From Actinokineospora sp. NBRC 105648 (GTDB lineage Bacteria > Actinomycetota > Actinomycetes > Mycobacteriales > Pseudonocardiaceae), in assembly GCF_030269645.1 (NCBI RefSeq), contig NZ_BSTR01000044.1, positions 1 to 64,000 of the forward strand: a stretch of DNA of 64,000 bases. Reading direction: 5' to 3'. Position numbers and translations under genes: made by a program. Positions 2,671 through 56,029 of the stretch are shown one piece after another. Each line of letters starts with the position of its first letter. The stretch's first letter is position 1. The notes beneath the pieces were generated by a model. The model was not told where the DNA came from. It worked only from the letters and a program-made list of their open reading frames with translations, and did not search any database.

Positions 2671-3522
2671 GTGGGCAACGAGACGAACGTCCAAGTCAAC
2701 GGAGTCGACCTGTGCTTCCAGACCTTCGGCGCGCCGGACGCCCCGGCGGTCCTGCTGATCGCCGGGCTGTCGATGTCGATGGACCACTGGCCGGACGAGT
2801 TCTGCCGGCGGCTCGCGGCCGCCGGGCGGCTGGTCGTCCGCTACGACCTGCGGGACAACGGCCGCTCGGTCACCTATCCGCCCGGCGCGCCCGGCTACAC
2901 CGGCGCGGACTTGGAGCGGGACGCCCTGGGTTTGCTCGACGCGCTGGGCCTGGCCCGCGCGCACCTGGTCGGGTTGTCCGCGGGTGGCGGGATCGCCCTG
3001 GTCCTGGCCATCGAGCACGCGGACCGGGTCTCGAGCCTGACCCTGATGTCCACCACGTCCGGATCGGGCGACGACCTGCCCCGGCCGGTGCCGCGGTTGC
3101 GGGCACGGTTCGCCGCGCCACCACCGGAGCCGGACTGGACAGACCGCGACGCGGTGGTCGACTACCTCGTCGACGACCTGCGCGCGTTCGCCGGGTCGCA
3201 CCCGCAGGACGAGGCGGAGAAGCGCGCGCTGGCCGAGCGGGTCGTCGACCGCACCCTCGACATGGCCTCGAGCGTGCGGAACAACTGGCTCATCGACCAC
3301 GGCGCCGGTGACCCGATCCGCCCGAGGCTGGACCGGGTCACCGCGCCGACACTGGTGATCCACGGGACCGAGGACCCGCTCTTCCCCGTCGAACACGGCG
3401 AAGCACTCGCGCGGGAGATCCCCGGCGCTCGACTGCTGGCACTGGACCGGGTCGGACACGAGGTGCCCCCGCGCGCGACCTGGGACACCGTCCTCGACGC
3501 GATCGTGGCACACACGTCCTGA
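2671..3522 (+). CDS. Alpha/beta hydrolase (esterase-like)
   Basis: A 283-residue cytoplasmic hydrolase. The fold is evident from VLLIAGLSMSMDHW (oxyanion region), YDLRDNGRS, and a nucleophile elbow GLSAGG with Ser103. The acid is probably Asp235 in GTEDPLFP and the base His263 in GHEVPP, so the triad is complete. Length and motifs resemble esterases such as RdmC-type methylesterases and other alpha/beta hydrolases, but substrate cannot be read from sequence. The start is a GTG with only a weak upstream GGGG. It faces the MDR oxidoreductase across a palindromic promoter and ends in a strong hairpin shared with the convergent VWA gene. Confidence 0.88.
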   Translation: MGNETNVQVNGVDLCFQTFGAPDAPAVLLIAGLSMSMDHWPDEFCRRLAAAGRLVVRYDLRDNGRSVTYPPGAPGYTGADLERDALGLLDALGLARAHLVGLSAGGGIALVLAIEHADRVSSLTLMSTTSGSGDDLPRPVPRLRARFAAPPPEPDWTDRDAVVDYLVDDLRAFAGSHPQDEAEKRALAERVVDRTLDMASSVRNNWLIDHGAGDPIRPRLDRVTAPTLVIHGTEDPLFPVEHGEALAREIPGARLLALDRVGHEVPPRATWDTVLDAIVAHTS

Positions 3523-3525
3523 CCG

Positions 3526-3569
3526 AACTGTCCATAGTGGCCTGATCAATCAGGCCACTGTGGACAGTT
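3526..3569. terminator. Bidirectional hairpin terminator
   Basis: Arms 3526-3546 and 3549-3569 form a 21-bp inverted repeat with a single mismatch and almost no loop (AACTGTCCA... and ...TGGACAGTT). It lies between the convergent hydrolase and VWA-protein genes and would serve both. Parts of it resemble the GTCCACAGTGGAC palindrome recurring elsewhere in the window. Confidence 0.8.
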
Positions 3570-3578
3570 GGCGCACCG

Positions 3579-6164
3579 TCACTTGCGGAGGACCACCCGC
3601 GCGGTGGTGATGTTGTTGCGGTAGTCGGGGTCGCGGACCACGAGCGAAGCACCGGCCCCGGCGATGGTCTGGGCACCGGTGAGCGTCCGGTCGGAGGTGA
3701 CCGTCACGGCGTAGCTAGTCGACGTGCCGGACGCGAGCGTCGGGAGGTAGAACGCGACGACGCGCCCGTGGTCGGTGACTATGCCGCCCGCCGGGTTGGT
3801 GACGCGCGTGCCCTTGGGCAACGTGATGCCCGAGAGGATCGCGGTCGCGGCGGCCGGGCCGTTGTTGCGGACCGTTAGCGTCACGACAAACGGTGCCCCG
3901 CTCGTCGCGGTGGCGGGAGCGGAAAGGCTGACGGCGATGTCGGCCCTCGCCGGACCCTGAGGTGCGGTGACGTTGCCGGTGAAGGTGGCCGGTGTCGTCA
4001 CGCCAGGCGTGGTCGCCGTGATGGTGACCAGCCCGGTCGTGCTCCCCGCGGTCAAAGTGGGTGCGGTGGCCTGCCCGTTGGTGCCAGTGTTCACCGTCGC
4101 GGCGGTGGCACCGCCCGCGAAAGCGGCTGTACCCGCGGTGACCGTGAAGGTGACCGGCGTGTCGACGGCCGGACCACCGGCGGTGTTCGTGACCGTGGCG
4201 ACCAGTGGTGCGGCGAACGAGGTGCCCGCTGTCGCGGACTGACCGCTACCCGAGGTAGCCGCGATGGACGCCGGTACGGCGTTGGTAACCGATCCGGTGA
4301 ATGTCGCGGGCGCGATCCCCGGAGCGCTCGCCGTGATGGTGACGCCCCCGGCCGTGCGTCCCGCCGTCAACACGGGTGAGGTCGCCCGCCCGTCAGTGCC
4401 GGTGGTCGCGGTCGCCGTCGCCGCGCCGCCGGGGAATGTGGCGGGGCCGGTAGTGGCGAAAGTGACGGGAGTACCCGCCGAGGGCTGCCCGATGGTGTCG
4501 GTCACCGTGGCCACGAGCGGCGCGGCGAACGGAGTGCCCGCCGGGGTGGACTGGCCGCCGCCCGAGGTGGGGGCGATGGCGCGGGGTACGGCAGCGGTGA
4601 CGGTCTCGGTGAAGGTGGCGATCGAGGTGGTGCCCGGTGCGCTCGCAACCACGGTAACTGCCCCGGGAGTGATGCCCGCGGTCAAGGCGGGCGTGGTCGC
4701 GCGGCCGTCGGTCCCCGAGGTGACCGTCACCGATGTCGCGCCGCCGGGGAAGGTGGCCGGACCGGCGAGGGTGAAGGTGACGGGTGTTCCCGCCACGGGC
4801 TGCGAGGTGGGGTTGAGCACCGACGCGGTCAGTGCCGTCGGGAAGGCGGTTCCCGCGGGGGTTGACTGGCCGTTGCCCGCGACCGGGGCGAGCGTCAAGT
4901 CCGCGCCGGGGGTCGCGGCGTTGTCGAAGATTTCCCGCAAGATGGCCGAGTAGTCCGCGGCCGTCCCGTCCGGCCGGTAGACGTACCGGCCGCCGGTTTC
5001 GCGGGCCAGCCGTTCGAACACCGCCCGCGCCGACGGTGTCTCAGCCGCCGCACGCGTGTCCCCCGCCGCGACGCAGTCGCCGGAGAGCAGGACGTGCACC
5101 GGGACACCGAGGCCCCGGGCGCGGCCGATCAGGCCGTCGATGTCGCCGCTGTGCGGGGACGCGTCGGTGACCAGCACGATCTCGCCCGCGCTGTCCTCGT
5201 CACCGGTCAGGCGGTCCAGCGCCAGGCTCACCGCGCCTGCGGAGTCCTCCGGGCAGTCGTCGCCGCCGCTGGCGTAGAGGCCGTTGACGGCCGCGATGGC
5301 AGCGGCGGAGTCCGTGGTGTTGGGCAGCACCAGCGTCGGGCTGTCCTTGAAGGTGATCAGCTCGTAGGACACCTCGCGCTGCACCTGGTCGTAGTCCTCG
5401 CCGCCGCGGCTGCCGATGAACCCGGCGAGCGCGGACTTGGCCCCCGCCAGCTCGTTGCTCATCGACCCGGTGTCGTCGACGGCCATGTCGACCCGCAACG
5501 GCGGCCAAGTCGATACCAGGTTCTGGACCTTGACCTCGGCGCCGCACGAACCGGTGTGCGTGGTCTCCATGGCGGTGCGGTTCATCGGGTTCCGCGCCCC
5601 GCCGGGGACCTTGAGGATGGCGAAGTTGACCTCCGCGCCGGTGGTGAGGAAGTCGTCCTGGTAGACCGATCCGTGGCGGATGCCCACCGGACTCGGGTCC
5701 CGCGAGACCGTGGAGGCCATGAACCCCGAGACGGCGGCGGTCTGCGGCCCGAACGGGCAGGTGATGACGGTTTTCGCGTTGCCGGTGATCCCGGCGCCCC
5801 GCCCGTTGATCTGGGCCACGACGCTGCCGAAGCCGAAGAACACCCCGGCGGTCCCCAGCTGGGCGCGGGTGGCCACCGCGTCCTCGACGGTGACCCGGTT
5901 GCTCCCCCGGTCGATTGTGTACACCTTGGACGGGTCGAGCTGGTTCAGGTAGTCGAGCTTGAGGCCGCGCAACAACTCCCCCAGCACGGGGTTGCTCGCC
6001 ACAGCGGCACGGCTGTAGTCCACCGACATCTTCGCGATGTCGTTTGTGGACACACTCTTATCGGCGGCGGGCGCCTGCTCGGCGGCCGCGGGTGACACCC
6101 CGACGCACAGGGCTATCGCCACTGCCGCGGCCAACCCCAATTCACGGATCTTCGTCGCACTCAT
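3579..6164 (-). CDS. Secreted VWA-domain protein with Ig-like repeats and a DUF11 domain
   Basis: An 861-residue exported protein. Residues 1-28 form a Sec signal peptide (KIRELG, hydrophobic core, cleavage near AAA-EQ). A von Willebrand factor A domain spans about 222-415, with the metal-binding MIDAS motif DDTGSMS (Asp230, Thr232, Ser234) and a later VTDASPHSGD. Three tandem Ig-like (bacterial Big_1/invasin type) repeats follow at about 427-720. Each carries GQS.AGT at its start and PVTF...FPGGA in the middle. A DUF11-like beta domain (about 735-855) ends the protein. No sortase motif or C-terminal membrane helix is visible, so it is probably released or held by interactions. The start at 6162-6164 has AGGAAGG just upstream. 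Role probably adhesion or matrix binding; partner unknown. Confidence 0.8.
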   Translation of the reverse strand: MSATKIRELGLAAAVAIALCVGVSPAAAEQAPAADKSVSTNDIAKMSVDYSRAAVASNPVLGELLRGLKLDYLNQLDPSKVYTIDRGSNRVTVEDAVATRAQLGTAGVFFGFGSVVAQINGRGAGITGNAKTVITCPFGPQTAAVSGFMASTVSRDPSPVGIRHGSVYQDDFLTTGAEVNFAILKVPGGARNPMNRTAMETTHTGSCGAEVKVQNLVSTWPPLRVDMAVDDTGSMSNELAGAKSALAGFIGSRGGEDYDQVQREVSYELITFKDSPTLVLPNTTDSAAAIAAVNGLYASGGDDCPEDSAGAVSLALDRLTGDEDSAGEIVLVTDASPHSGDIDGLIGRARGLGVPVHVLLSGDCVAAGDTRAAAETPSARAVFERLARETGGRYVYRPDGTAADYSAILREIFDNAATPGADLTLAPVAGNGQSTPAGTAFPTALTASVLNPTSQPVAGTPVTFTLAGPATFPGGATSVTVTSGTDGRATTPALTAGITPGAVTVVASAPGTTSIATFTETVTAAVPRAIAPTSGGGQSTPAGTPFAAPLVATVTDTIGQPSAGTPVTFATTGPATFPGGAATATATTGTDGRATSPVLTAGRTAGGVTITASAPGIAPATFTGSVTNAVPASIAATSGSGQSATAGTSFAAPLVATVTNTAGGPAVDTPVTFTVTAGTAAFAGGATAATVNTGTNGQATAPTLTAGSTTGLVTITATTPGVTTPATFTGNVTAPQGPARADIAVSLSAPATATSGAPFVVTLTVRNNGPAAATAILSGITLPKGTRVTNPAGGIVTDHGRVVAFYLPTLASGTSTSYAVTVTSDRTLTGAQTIAGAGASLVVRDPDYRNNITTARVVLRK

Positions 6165-53789: not shown

Positions 53790-53857
53790 ATAACCCCTGC
53801 GCATGGGATGTGATCGCGAAAGGCTCTTGGACACGCCCACCCACCCCGGGCGATGGT
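53790..53857 (+). promoter_or_regulatory. Regulon promoter C (flavin reductase)
   Basis: Plus strand: box ATAA-N9-ATGGGATGTGATC (53790-53815), 11 bases, TTGGAC (53827-53832), 19 bases, then GATGGT (53852-53857) as a weak -10. Spacing equals promoters A and B, but the strand is opposite, so the match is not a local duplication. The start would lie near 53864, leaving a short leader with AAGGAG before the ATG at 53883. Confidence 0.65.
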
Positions 53858-53882
53858 GGACTCGGAGCGGAAGGAGCACAAG

Positions 53883-54428
53883 ATGAGTCGTCCCACCGAG
53901 GTCACCCGAGATCCACGCACAACGGACACGGCACTCGCGGGCCTCCCCCAGGACCTCGACCAGGGCGTCCTGCGCGCCGCCTTCGGCGCCTTCCCAACCG
54001 GCGTCGTCGCCGTCGCCGCACGCGTGGACAACCAGGTGGTCGGCATCGCCGCCAGCTCGTTCACCTCGGTGTCCCTGGACCCACCCCTGGTCTCCTTCGC
54101 CATCAGCACCACATCCCGAACCTGGCCCGCACTACGCCGCGCAGACCACCTGGGCGTGACTGTGCTGGCCGACCACCACGACCGAGTCGCCCGCCAACTC
54201 GCAGGCCCGGCCGACACCCGCTTCGCCAACCTCGACACCACCACCGACGACAACGGCGCAGTAACCCTGCCCGACGGTGTCGCTTGGTTCGACACCACGA
54301 TCCACCACCAGGTAGAGGCAGGCGACCACACCATCGTCCTACTCCGCCTGCACGCGGTAGCGCACGTCGAACACAAAAGACCACTGGTCTTCCACCGAAG
54401 CGGATTCGGCCTACACCGCCCCACCTGA
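53883..54428 (+). CDS. Flavin reductase-domain protein (NAD(P)H:FMN reductase)
   Basis: A 181-residue protein of the HpaC/ActVB-type flavin reductase family. The N-terminal segment LRAAFGAFPTGVVAVAARV, then GIAASSFTSVSLDPPLVSFAIS and the late HVEHKRPLVFH are typical of this split-barrel fold. It should supply FMNH2 to the three LLM enzymes and the SfnB-like enzyme nearby. The ATG at 53883 has AAGGAG six bases upstream; an earlier in-frame ATG at 53853 lies in the core promoter. It is divergent from the LysR gene and is expressed from promoter C. Confidence 0.88.
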   Translation: MSRPTEVTRDPRTTDTALAGLPQDLDQGVLRAAFGAFPTGVVAVAARVDNQVVGIAASSFTSVSLDPPLVSFAISTTSRTWPALRRADHLGVTVLADHHDRVARQLAGPADTRFANLDTTTDDNGAVTLPDGVAWFDTTIHHQVEAGDHTIVLLRLHAVAHVEHKRPLVFHRSGFGLHRPT

Positions 54429-54560
54429 CCCCACGGCCCACGGCCATAGTCCACAGTGGAGCCTCCCCACCAGCCCCACCCACAAACTCAACTGAATCCC
54501 ACCCCCACCAAACCGCAGCGGAAAGGCCGACCCCGCTGGAACGCAAGTCCCGCTACGAAT

Positions 54561-54698
54561 GCTCGATCTAGTGGACTCGCTTCGTGTGGGGGGAGAGTGC
54601 CGCTAAACTTGCCGTGGGTGGGGATGCCCTTCCCTGCCCTTTGCTCTCCACCGCGGTGCTCCAGGGGCCCCACACGAAGCGAGTTCACTAGATCGAGC
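54561..54698 (+). repeat. Palindromic repeat unit 1 (138 bp)
   Basis: Terminal arms 54561-54591 and 54668-54698 are inverted repeats of 31 bases with one mismatch (outer GCTCGATCTAGTG, inner CGCTTCGTGTGGGG). The interior carries GCCGCTAAACTTGCCGTG and GGTGGGGATGCCCTTC, which recur in inverse orientation in unit 2. It may be a MITE-like or REP-like element, or a structured RNA. Confidence 0.85.
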
Positions 54699-54793
54699 CC
54701 CCTATCTTTTCCTCGGGCAACCCATGTCTACAAGCCACCCGTGGCGTCGACCCCAGGGCAGCACATCCCATGAGCTGCCCGAGCAAGAGCGGG

Positions 54794-54933
54794 GCTCGAT
54801 TGGCTGGACTGCCTTCGCGCGGGGCCCCTAGAGCACCGCGGTGGGGAAAAAGCGTGGAGTGAAGGGCATCCCCACCACACGGCAAGTTTAGCGGTGCTCT
54901 CCCCCCACACGAAGGCAGTCCACCCAATCGAGC
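54794..54933 (-). repeat. Palindromic repeat unit 2 (140 bp, inverted copy of unit 1)
   Basis: Terminal arms 54794-54824 and 54903-54933 are inverted repeats of 31 bases with three mismatches. The interior is the reverse complement of unit 1 with substitutions and small indels. At arm positions 8, 9, 10, 18 and 19 the two units differ, yet both arms within each unit have changed together, so pairing is kept. Confidence 0.85.
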
Positions 54934-54974
54934 ACAAACGTAACGGGTCTTGCGTACCAGCGGGCTCGGCATTT

Positions 54975-54998
54975 AGAGATTGAGAGATTCAGAGATTT
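54975..54998. repeat. Three tandem AGAGATT(N) octamers
   Basis: AGAGATTG, AGAGATTC and AGAGATTT follow one another just past the stop of the ketopantoate-reductase-like gene. This is an AT-rich patch in a GC-rich region; function unknown. Confidence 0.5.
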
Positions 54999-55018
54999 AG
55001 GGCTCTCTCCAGAGGCGT

Positions 55019-56029
55019 CTACGCCGGCTCGGGCACCGTGTTCAGTTCGGGCAGGATGGTCACCAGGTCGTTGTCGTCCAGTGAGCGGGCCGGGGTTCGC
55101 TGGGCCACCGCACGCCCGATCCGTGCCAATACCGCTGCGTTGACCGGTGCCTCGTGTCCGTGGAGTCGGGCCAGTAGGACGATCTCGCCGTTCAGGAACT
55201 CCGATTCCACGGTGGCGCCCCTGACCAGGCTCTGCCACGTGGAGTGTCCGATGCGTTCGTGGCCGGGGATTGGCTGGGACACGAATCCCGAGAGGTCCTG
55301 CGTGCTCTCCTCCGCCACGTTCGCAGCCCGGATGCCGGCCGCCGCGAGCACTTCCCGGGCCTCCTGTCGGACGAGTTCGCCCGCCCGGGTGCGCAAGGGT
55401 GAGTCGGGGTAGAGCGCGTCCAGGGCGTTGGGCAGGATCGAGATCAGCTTGCCCGCCTTGAAGGACACGATGTCGGGCACGATCTCGAAACCCAGGTTGG
55501 ACTCGGTGAAGTCGGTCGCGATCGTGTCGAGGCGGGGGTCTGTGCCGGTTGGGTACTTGCCTGCCCAGAAGACGCCCGCGATCGGTGCGGCCGGTGAGAT
55601 GACCTCGCCAGGGGCTACGTGCGTGGCGGGGGACCATGACACAGCACCGAACACTGTGCTGAAGCGGCGCAGGGCACTTCGTTCGCTGTCGAGTCCATTT
55701 TGGAGTGTCAGGACCGGGAGCTCGGTAGCCGCGACGCCGGTGCCGACCGGTTGCCAGGCCCAGGCCGCGAGTGCCGTGTCGGCGTCCTGGGTCTTGGTGG
55801 CCAGGACGAGCACGTCGTCCGGCCGCAGTTCCAGTTCGGCGGGCTCGCCGACCACCGGCAGTTGCAACGTCGTTGTGCCGTCCGGGCGGATGTAGCGCAG
55901 GCCGGTCTCGCGCAGGGCGGCGAGGTGTGCGCCGCGGGCGACCAGTACGACTTCGCGGCCGGTCAGGTGCAGTTCGGCGGCTGTGGTGGCGCCGACCGCG
56001 CCTGCGCCGATGACCACGTAGCGGGTCAC
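55019..56029 (-). CDS. Ketopantoate reductase (PanE/ApbA)-family protein
   Basis: A 336-residue NADP-dependent dehydrogenase. It begins TRYVVIGAGAVGATTAAEL, a Rossmann fold with the GAGAVG turn, then VLVLATKTQDADTAL, LTLQNGLDSE (conserved Asn) and a C-terminal helical ApbA_C domain (VSFKAGKLISILPNALDALY). Pantoate synthesis is possible, but the location with an alpha/beta hydrolase in the sulfur region suggests another 2-keto acid or a related substrate. The GTG start overlaps the hydrolase stop in GTGA. Confidence 0.83.
   Translation of the reverse strand: MTRYVVIGAGAVGATTAAELHLTGREVVLVARGAHLAALRETGLRYIRPDGTTTLQLPVVGEPAELELRPDDVLVLATKTQDADTALAAWAWQPVGTGVAATELPVLTLQNGLDSERSALRRFSTVFGAVSWSPATHVAPGEVISPAAPIAGVFWAGKYPTGTDPRLDTIATDFTESNLGFEIVPDIVSFKAGKLISILPNALDALYPDSPLRTRAGELVRQEAREVLAAAGIRAANVAEESTQDLSGFVSQPIPGHERIGHSTWQSLVRGATVESEFLNGEIVLLARLHGHEAPVNAAVLARIGRAVAQRTPARSLDDNDLVTILPELNTVPEPA

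What the first reader, a model, noticed from the sequence alone, without database searches (positions are those of the whole stretch)
54561..54933. A 373-bp nested palindromic element with covarying arms
Two units (138 and 140 bp) lie in inverse orientation. Each has 31-bp terminal inverted repeats (1 and 3 mismatches) and a shared interior (CCGCTAAACTTGCCGTG and flanks). At five arm positions the units differ, but both arms within a unit changed together. The segment between units has its own inverted repeat, so the whole can fold as two hairpins or one long hairpin. Paired changes point either to selection on base pairing (RNA or cruciform) or to transposon-end homogenisation. No coding sequence fits.
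Basis: seen in the sequence. Interest (0 to 1): 0.8.

Follow-up and report, generated by a model that had tools for sequence, protein, structure and literature searches.

The report
Repeated folding hairpins between converging genes
Two copies of a roughly 140-letter folding DNA repeat, present hundreds of times in this soil bacterium and many times in its relatives, sit between two genes that run toward each other; in related genera the same repeat forms both ends of a jumping gene that encodes a likely DNA-cutting enzyme.

Summary
The 373-bp segment is two head-to-head copies of a ~140-nt hairpin. The window's genome (genus Actinokineospora) holds about 300 such cores (320 hits against 8 for a reversed control). 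A covariance model finds the family in 16 of 16 genus genomes, in 10 of 46 sampled genera of the family, and in no genome outside the genus among 296 sampled from the class. Covariation is strong: 21 of 31 outer and 11 of 11 inner pairs changed on both sides. In the genus, G-U wobbles far outnumber A-C mismatches (38:3 after clustering), so one strand's fold is selected, not a cruciform. Units avoid promoters, prefer gaps between convergent genes, and in the amplified subfamily carry a terminator-like hairpin on that strand (79 of 79; other strand 5). A. diospyrosa has the same eight genes here but a 52-bp gap instead of 590 bp. In four genomes of three other genera, pairs of these hairpins flank DUF222-HNH (REP13E12-type) genes, outward-facing in all 27 pairs found complete; one such element is absent at the same site in congeners. 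I read the window element as a MITE-like derivative kept as a directional 3'-end hairpin. Mobilisation by the HNH protein is inferred.

The parts
54561..54698 (+). hairpin unit 1 (138 nt); + is the strand with the AGGGG bulge on the 3' side
   Evidence: one of 42 units of RNA model R1
54794..54933 (-). hairpin unit 2 (140 nt), head-to-head with unit 1
   Evidence: 138.4 bits
54561..54591 (+). unit 1 outer stem, 5' arm (31 nt); partner 54668-54698
   Evidence: covariation
54668..54698 (+). unit 1 outer stem, 3' arm
54595..54603 (+). unit 1 inner stem, 5' side (GAGTGCCGC); partner 54653-54661
   Evidence: 11 of 11 inner-stem column pairs covary
54604..54609 (+). TAAACT, single-stranded motif (TARNCT-like) of the family
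54616..54649 (+). apical hairpin plus T-rich tail, terminator-like on the + strand of unit 1
54663..54667 (+). AGGGG bulge 3' of the inner stem; with the next CCCC it reads GGGGCCCC
54699..54793 (.). spacer between the units with its own inverted repeat (54712-54726/54769-54783)
54794..54824 (-). unit 2 outer stem, one arm; partner 54903-54933
54903..54933 (-). unit 2 outer stem, other arm
54533..54557 (.). outer inverted repeat, left copy (CCGCTGG..GCTACG)
54939..54963 (.). outer inverted repeat, right copy (CGTAACGGG..CAGCGG)
54510..54985 (.). approximate extent of homology between the genomic copies of the two-hairpin module
   Evidence: 30 copies aligned with 60-base flanks
53853..54428 (+). 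flavin reductase gene, convergent left neighbour
55019..56029 (-). ketopantoate-reductase-like (ApbA) gene, convergent right neighbour

Best explanation
The window element is a non-autonomous, MITE-like derivative of a hairpin-ended mobile element family of Pseudonocardiaceae. SHOWN: one structured ~140-nt unit (31-bp outer stem, ~11-bp inner stem, TARNCT-like motif, purine bulge) is repeated hundreds of times in this genome and is found in all 16 genus genomes searched; the same kind of unit, in inverted outward-facing pairs, bounds DUF222-HNH genes in three other genera; elements are present or absent at orthologous sites; in the genus the fold of one particular strand is conserved by paired changes and tolerated G-U wobbles. 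INFERRED: copies spread when a DUF222-HNH protein (or a relative, now absent from most of this genus) recognises the folded single strand and inserts or converts it at new sites; copies that survive lie at gene 3' ends because, transcribed through in the + direction, they end or protect the transcript. In the window each converging gene has one unit in its own sense direction, so the pair would work as two back-to-back directional terminators or insulators. Whether the selected strand is RNA (more likely) or single-stranded DNA is not settled.
For: Copies: 320 core hits against 8 for the reversed control. Range: 16 of 16 genus genomes and 0 of 25 others among relatives; 26 of 150 in the family, 6 of them of the genus; 2 of 296 in the class sample, both of the genus. 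Structure. Strand: own G-T 172 against A-C 5 over 96 of 98 units; 30 representatives at 90% identity 38:3, 15 at 80% 15:2. Context: 37 of 64 own loci convergent, 4 divergent, 0 of 67 overlapping a gene call (about 26/165 and 68/165 for other gaps by subtraction). Solo units of other genomes, 67 places: 32 convergent, 20 tandem sense, 5 tandem antisense, 2 divergent, 8 at ends. Terminator-like: 79/79 distinct amplified own units against 5/79 on the other strand and 31/79 shuffled. Empty site: 52 bp in A. diospyrosa, same eight genes. DUF222-HNH gene beside the unit: G168 18/18 loci, G137 11/11, G173 5/20 read, G061 3/11 read; 27/27 complete pairs outward-facing; DUF222 over cut-off in four of four proteins, one per genome. 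In G061 the 21-base outer arms of 8 gene-less and 4 gene-bearing units are the same but for one base each in L266 and L268. One composite is present in G168 and missing in congeners.
Against: No transposition seen and no target-site duplication found by eye. Of 11 genus genomes searched only two have DUF222 genes, 1 in the own and 2 in G006, none with a unit in about 1.5 kb of flank, so no mobiliser is visible for the window's copies. Of 30 DUF222 loci read, 27 from other families, none has a unit and only L169 has any stem-loop of the length sought, a single one. Units in G085/G136 (15 loci) and G122/G142 (2) have no such gene nearby. The Pfam HNH model passes its cut-off in one of the four proteins (L209), just misses in L204 (21.1 of 21.4), scores 17 in L211 and is not reported for L131. 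Strand asymmetry fails outside the genus: G-T 8 against A-C 6, G173 solos 0:5. The terminator-like hairpin is missing in 12 of 15 ancestral-type own units, in G085 (0/8), G137 (0/14) and G173 composites (0/7; 7/7 on the other strand); in G173 solos shuffles do as well (10/11). Recent own solo units in tandem contexts: 5 sense, 5 antisense; congeners 6:4. No RNA data.
Confidence: 0.58

Rival explanations
1. Host-encoded bidirectional terminator/insulator that multiplied by recombination among repeats; no dedicated mobile element is involved and the HNH association in other genera is secondary (endonuclease genes invaded the hairpins).
For: Convergent enrichment and promoter avoidance; directional terminator-like hairpin; A. 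diospyrosa carries a plain short inverted repeat in the same gap; the window's convergent pair at 2671-3522/3579-6122 has an ordinary 44-nt palindrome; 6 of 8 G085 unit loci have their counterpart, with the unit, among the 7 unit-bearing G136 loci fetched (the other two were not looked up); 30 DUF222 loci read elsewhere lack the hairpins.
Against: A terminator does not need a 31-bp outer stem, a conserved bulge and motif, hundreds of near-identical copies, or lineage-specific subfamilies; HNH proteins only 23-58% identical between genomes sit in the same outward-facing arrangement.
Confidence: 0.2
2. REPIN/RAYT-like single-stranded DNA element moved by a Y1 (HUH) transposase.
For: Inverted doublets forming long hairpins with compensatory changes, as described for REPINs (abstract and passages of PMC3116915).
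Against: No Y1_Tnp match in the own genome; 1 of 11 genus genomes searched has one. The unit is 140 nt with internal motifs, not a 20-60-nt REP (sizes recalled).
Confidence: 0.05
3. A conserved regulatory or processed small RNA (3'-UTR-derived) whose multiplication is incidental.
For: Strand-specific pairing selection in the genus, conserved single-stranded motifs found on one strand only (TARNCT-like and AGRGG patterns, 0 on the other strand in every set), sense orientation in 20 of 25 tandem cases.
Against: No Rfam family reaches gathering (1 and 1 weak miRNA hits); own recent solo copies 5 sense to 5 antisense; subfamilies differ from species to species.
Confidence: 0.12

Closest known systems
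REP13E12 (13E12 repeat family; DUF222-HNH) elements of actinobacteria
   Same: Multicopy DUF222 protein with an HNH-like C-terminus; 'REP13E12/HNH endonuclease/DUF222' is named as a repetitive class of mycobacteria in PMC10589994 (passages). That the two are the same family is recalled.
   Different: Here the gene lies between two inverted structured hairpins; 30 DUF222 loci read elsewhere show none; the window copy has no gene.
REPINs / RAYT
   Same: Extragenic inverted hairpin doublets in hundreds of copies with compensatory changes (PMC3116915, abstract and passages).
   Different: No Y1 transposase in the own genome; longer unit with internal conserved motifs; partner in other genera is an HNH-type protein.
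Bacterial MITEs such as Correia/NEMIS and ERIC (recalled; PMC10969869 and PMC2229807 seen only in a search listing)
   Same: ~100-160-bp palindromic, intergenic, non-coding repeats that can fold when transcribed.
   Different: No sequence relation known to me; no target-site duplication found here; candidate partner is not a DDE transposase.
HEARO/IscB (HNH endonuclease-associated RNA and ORF; recalled)
   Same: A structured element beside an HNH endonuclease gene.
   Different: No Rfam match; NCBIfam's IscB model hits one of four proteins at 23.8 bits against a cut-off of 175, over residues 253-315 only; two inverted copies, gene in either orientation.

Membership tests
REPIN/RAYT | Y1 (HUH) transposase gene in the genome | tested here: not met
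   PF01797: 0 in G000; 1 of 11 genus genomes searched
REPIN/RAYT | extragenic inverted doublets that fold as hairpins | tested here: met
   98 own units: 31 pairs (30 head-to-head, 1 back-to-back) and 36 solos; folds
MITE | terminal inverted repeats, no coding capacity, many copies | tested here: met
MITE | target-site duplication | tested here: inconclusive
   none seen by eye at 9 G168, 7 G137 and 5 G173 composites; A. diospyrosa too diverged between the genes for an exact junction
MITE | shared ends with an autonomous element in the same genome | tested here: inconclusive
   met in G061, where gene-less and DUF222-HNH-bearing units share the outer arms; not found in the window's genome
REP13E12 (DUF222-HNH) elements | encodes a DUF222 plus HNH protein | tested here: not met
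   window copy has no gene; composites of four other genomes have DUF222 over cut-off in 4 of 4, HNH over cut-off in 1 of 4
IscB/HEARO (OMEGA) | IscB protein over its cut-off and HEARO/omega RNA | tested here: not met
   23.8 bits against 175 for one of four proteins; no HEARO match in five loci searched
intrinsic terminator | GC-rich hairpin followed by a T tract, in the sense direction downstream of a gene | tested here: met
   54616-54649 (shuffles mean 0.4); 79 of 79 distinct amplified own units on the + strand; not general across the family
intrinsic terminator | RNA 3' ends at the site | not testable with these tools
   no transcript data

The most novel reading that the evidence does not exclude
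DUF222-HNH endonucleases and these hairpins form a mobile ribonucleoprotein-type system: the transcribed hairpin is bound by the HNH protein and serves as recognition or guide element, with its 3' end pointing out of the element into flanking DNA, so that the hairpin alone can be copied to new 3'-end sites in trans. It would be an HNH-plus-RNA mobile class unrelated to IscB and would explain how REP13E12-type genes spread.
Probability: 0.13. Interest if true: 0.92.

Novelty: new variant of a known kind. Interest (0 to 1): 0.72.

Why it matters
Repeated DUF222-HNH (REP13E12-type) genes occur in many copies in some actinobacteria (for example 50 matches in one genome), and I know of no described mechanism for their spread. 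An inverted hairpin pair around such genes, with gene-less hairpins sharing the same outer arms in the same genome (G061), gives a concrete substrate to test. The family is also a natural experiment on strand-specific folding selection in a mobile repeat and on how mobile hairpins become 3'-end signals. My searches of open-access full text found no description (listings, plus passages of two papers); most subscription papers and all preprints were outside that library.

Tried and rejected
Cruciform in double-stranded DNA as the selected form: rejected for this genus because G-T wobbles (A-C mismatches on the other strand) outnumber A-C 172:5 in the own genome and 43:1 in congeners; not rejected in other genera (8:6).

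One-off duplication and hidden coding sequence: rejected. RAYT: rejected. Known RNA family: Rfam gave only two miRNA-precursor hits far below gathering.

Sense orientation as a general rule: convergent contexts make the '5' neighbour on the same strand' count automatic, so only tandem contexts were used. There the own ancestral-type units are 5:0 and own recent ones 5:5, congeners 6:4 and other genera 14:1.

Pseudoknot between the AGGGG bulge and the loop: looked at by eye in the sequences, no consistent partner. Target-site duplication: not found.

Dropped before counts: 3 of 101 own hits as partial; 2 of 98 units with fewer than 27 pairs in the wobble count; 3 of 67 own loci and 8 of 67 other places at sequence ends. 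One search had counted two G013 places twice in its context table (69 entries); removes them, and its figures are used here. Five congener loci with clustered or paired units (L103, L104, L112, L120, L128) were left out of the solo count. Own regions were chosen because one search listed cores in them (first 100 places, contigs C1-C19). In G173, 25 of 36 model matches were read; in G061, 12 of 19. The G136 loci were fetched because they hold units, so cannot show losses. The 26/165 and 68/165 backgrounds assume that the 64 element gaps are distinct and at least 150 bp. The family- and class-wide searches scored 21 and 10 candidates per genome with strict filters, so absences there are weak.

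Full report
Observation. The 5' arms of the two units differ at five positions, the 3' arms at those five and four more. Each unit folds at z -9.3 to -11.0 on either strand, and 54520-54960 as one long hairpin at z -23. A 25-nt outer inverted repeat encloses the pair (54533-54557/54939-54963). Alignment of 30 genomic copies shows homology from about 54510 to 54985.

Copy number and range. BLASTN gave 80 matches in the own genome from 40 scored of 338 candidates, each place counted on both strands because the unit is palindromic. The core CCGCTAAACTTG with up to one mismatch occurs 320 times, its reversed control 8 times. Some copies lie within about 60 bases of a contig end (for example C7:57, C13:7, C15:51), as expected when repeats break an assembly. 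In 41 own regions (853,292 bases, chosen for hits) there are 98 full units: 36 solo and 31 pairs, 30 head-to-head and one back-to-back. Covariance model R1 was built from 42 units, 20 of the own genome and 22 of congeners. It finds the family in 16 of 16 genomes of the genus and in none of 25 other relatives. It finds it in 26 of 150 genomes of the family, 10 of 46 genera, 6 of the 26 being of the own genus, and in 2 of 296 genomes of a class-wide sample, both of this genus. The latter two searches scored few candidates per genome. Genus name: the best named relative of the neighbouring ApbA protein is Actinokineospora diospyrosa at 76%, and its contig has the same length (136,794) and genes as contig C19 of G015, a genome of the window's genus.

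Structure under selection. On the MAFFT alignment of 42 units, 94.8% of cells pair in the 31-bp outer and 11-bp inner stems; 32 of 42 pairs have changes on both sides (outer 21 of 31, inner 11 of 11); 0 of 500 shuffles reach any measure, and slid versions drop to 35-46% paired. Relatedness inflates such counts, so I asked a second question. A pair drifting through a wobble is G-T on one strand and A-C on the other. Oriented with the AGGGG bulge 3', 96 own units show 172 G-T and 5 A-C cells in the outer stem, and 33 distinct congener units 43 and 1. Clustered to 30 representatives at 90% identity the ratio is 38:3, to 15 at 80% it is 15:2 (binomial p 1e-8 and 0.002). In this genus one strand is therefore selected as a folded single strand. 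In other genera wobbles are rare and the ratio is 8:6, with G173 solos 0:5, so the strand claim is limited to the genus. The TARNCT-like and AGRGG patterns, where found, lie on that same strand only; they match 11 and 33 of 36 congener units, for example, and the AGRGG pattern matches none of the 12 G061 units, which have a GGGGGT-type bulge instead.

Position. Of 67 own element loci none overlaps a gene call. Among 64 with neighbours, 37 are convergent, 23 tandem and 4 divergent; other gaps of at least 150 bp are about 26 convergent and 68 divergent of 165 (p 1e-9 and 7e-8). For solo units at 67 places of other genomes: 32 convergent, 20 tandem sense, 5 tandem antisense, 2 divergent, 8 at ends (20:5, p 0.004). 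Recent own solo units are 5 sense and 5 antisense in tandem contexts. Composites are less biased, 6 convergent of 22 with both neighbours known (against 32 of 59 solos p 0.045), which hints that the 3' bias comes from survival rather than insertion. The apical part of the unit looks like an intrinsic terminator on the + strand: 54616-54639 with a T-rich tail, 79 of 79 distinct amplified own units (other strand 5, shuffled apical part 31), 27 of 33 congener units (2; 11), 14 of 21 in G168 (0; 6). It is not a family-wide trait: 3 of 15 ancestral-type own units, 0 of 8 in G085, 0 of 14 in G137, 0 of 7 G173 composites; 4 of 4 G061 composites have it on both strands.

Presence and absence. A. diospyrosa keeps eight genes in the same order around this locus, with flavin reductase and ApbA converging across 52 bp that hold a simple inverted repeat and no R1 match, although that genome has at least 78 units elsewhere (G015). 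Here the gap is 590 bp. The sequence between the genes is too diverged to read the exact junction. By contrast, in the close pair G085/G136 (flanks 92-96% identical) 6 of 8 G085 unit loci have a unit-bearing counterpart among the 7 G136 loci fetched; one pair of orthologues (L138/L276) differs by two double, pairing-preserving changes, which could equally be conversion by another copy.

The partner. In G168 model hits came as inverted pairs about 1.6 kb apart. Reading them showed an open frame between the hairpins: DUF222 (76.9 bits) with an HNH-like C-terminus, the REP13E12 type (type recalled). Of one protein per genome, DUF222 passes its cut-off in four of four and Pfam HNH in one (L209), narrowly missing in L204, at 17 bits in L211 and unreported in L131, so the HNH label for G168 and G137 rests partly on likeness by eye and on homology to the others. 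Over all loci read, such a gene adjoins the unit at 18 of 18 G168 loci (one truncated), 11 of 11 G137 loci (two broken), 5 of 20 G173 loci and 3 of 11 G061 loci; none at 15 G085/G136 and 2 G122/G142 loci. In 27 loci both hairpins were detected, always outward-facing; the gene lies in either direction. The proteins are 23-58% identical between genomes, so the association is old or repeated. In G061 gene-less and gene-bearing units share their 21-base outer arms but for single bases in L266 and L268. The L132 element of G168 is missing between the same neighbours in G137 (153-bp gap) and G153 (49-bp gap); in G087 the gap is about 720 bp without an element match. Against this: of 11 genus genomes only the own (1 gene) and G006 (2) have DUF222, no unit lies in the fetched flanks of 30 DUF222 loci, 27 of them from other families, and one search found a stem-loop of the length sought at only one of them (L169).

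Reading. The simplest account that covers all of this is a mobile element family with hairpin ends, some copies carrying a DUF222-HNH gene and others not, whose gene-less copies multiplied in Actinokineospora and persist at gene 3' ends, where the folded, terminator-bearing strand is transcribed. Mobility in trans by the HNH protein and the RNA nature of the selected strand are inferences. A host terminator that the endonuclease gene later invaded is the main rival.

Known families. REPINs resemble it most in anatomy (PMC3116915, abstract and passages), but there is no Y1 transposase. MITE criteria are met except target-site duplication and a visible mobiliser. HEARO/IscB is a resemblance only: no RNA-family match and an IscB score far below cut-off. 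For REP13E12 I saw passages of PMC10589994; Gordon et al. 1999 is known to me only through its reference list. The listings show no paper describing hairpins around these genes.

Noticed in passing
L076 9779-9867 and 10287-10373 (own genome C4, about 219179-219267 and 219687-219773): Two tRNA-like genes, alike except around the anticodon and a few other bases, flank a solo hairpin unit. ARAGORN calls one 'tRNA-???' and the other Gly(tcc); the long variable arm and odd anticodon loop suggest non-canonical tRNAs (recalled: allo-tRNAs).
   Followed up: no
window 3526-3569: 44-nt near-perfect palindrome in the gap between another convergent gene pair (2671-3522 +, 3579-6122 -): an ordinary bidirectional-terminator-like site, useful for comparison.
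   Followed up: partly
window 54500-54560 and own copies such as L085 10100-10400, L095 (second half of the stretch shown): Further, shorter repeats (CCGCTGGTACCGCAGCGG / GGCCGACC type, and CGGGCAACGAAGACGGC type) lie in tandem beside the hairpins.
   Followed up: no
window 54970-55005; L076 9317-9712: Degenerate GAGATT-type repeats directly right of the element, and a ~390-bp GGA-rich tract beside another copy.
   Followed up: no
L104 (G005) 640-1885: Cluster of five hairpin units in one 1.2-kb stretch (three on one strand, then two on the other), the densest array among the loci read.
   Followed up: no
L138/L276 (G085/G136): Orthologous units in closely related species differ by two double compensatory pairs toward the commoner variant, which may be gene conversion between copies.
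   Followed up: partly
L155 (own genome C14:120240-121175, minus strand): The only DUF222 gene of the own genome is 42% identical to the hairpin-bounded protein of G061 (L209) but has no unit in its flanks.
   Followed up: partly
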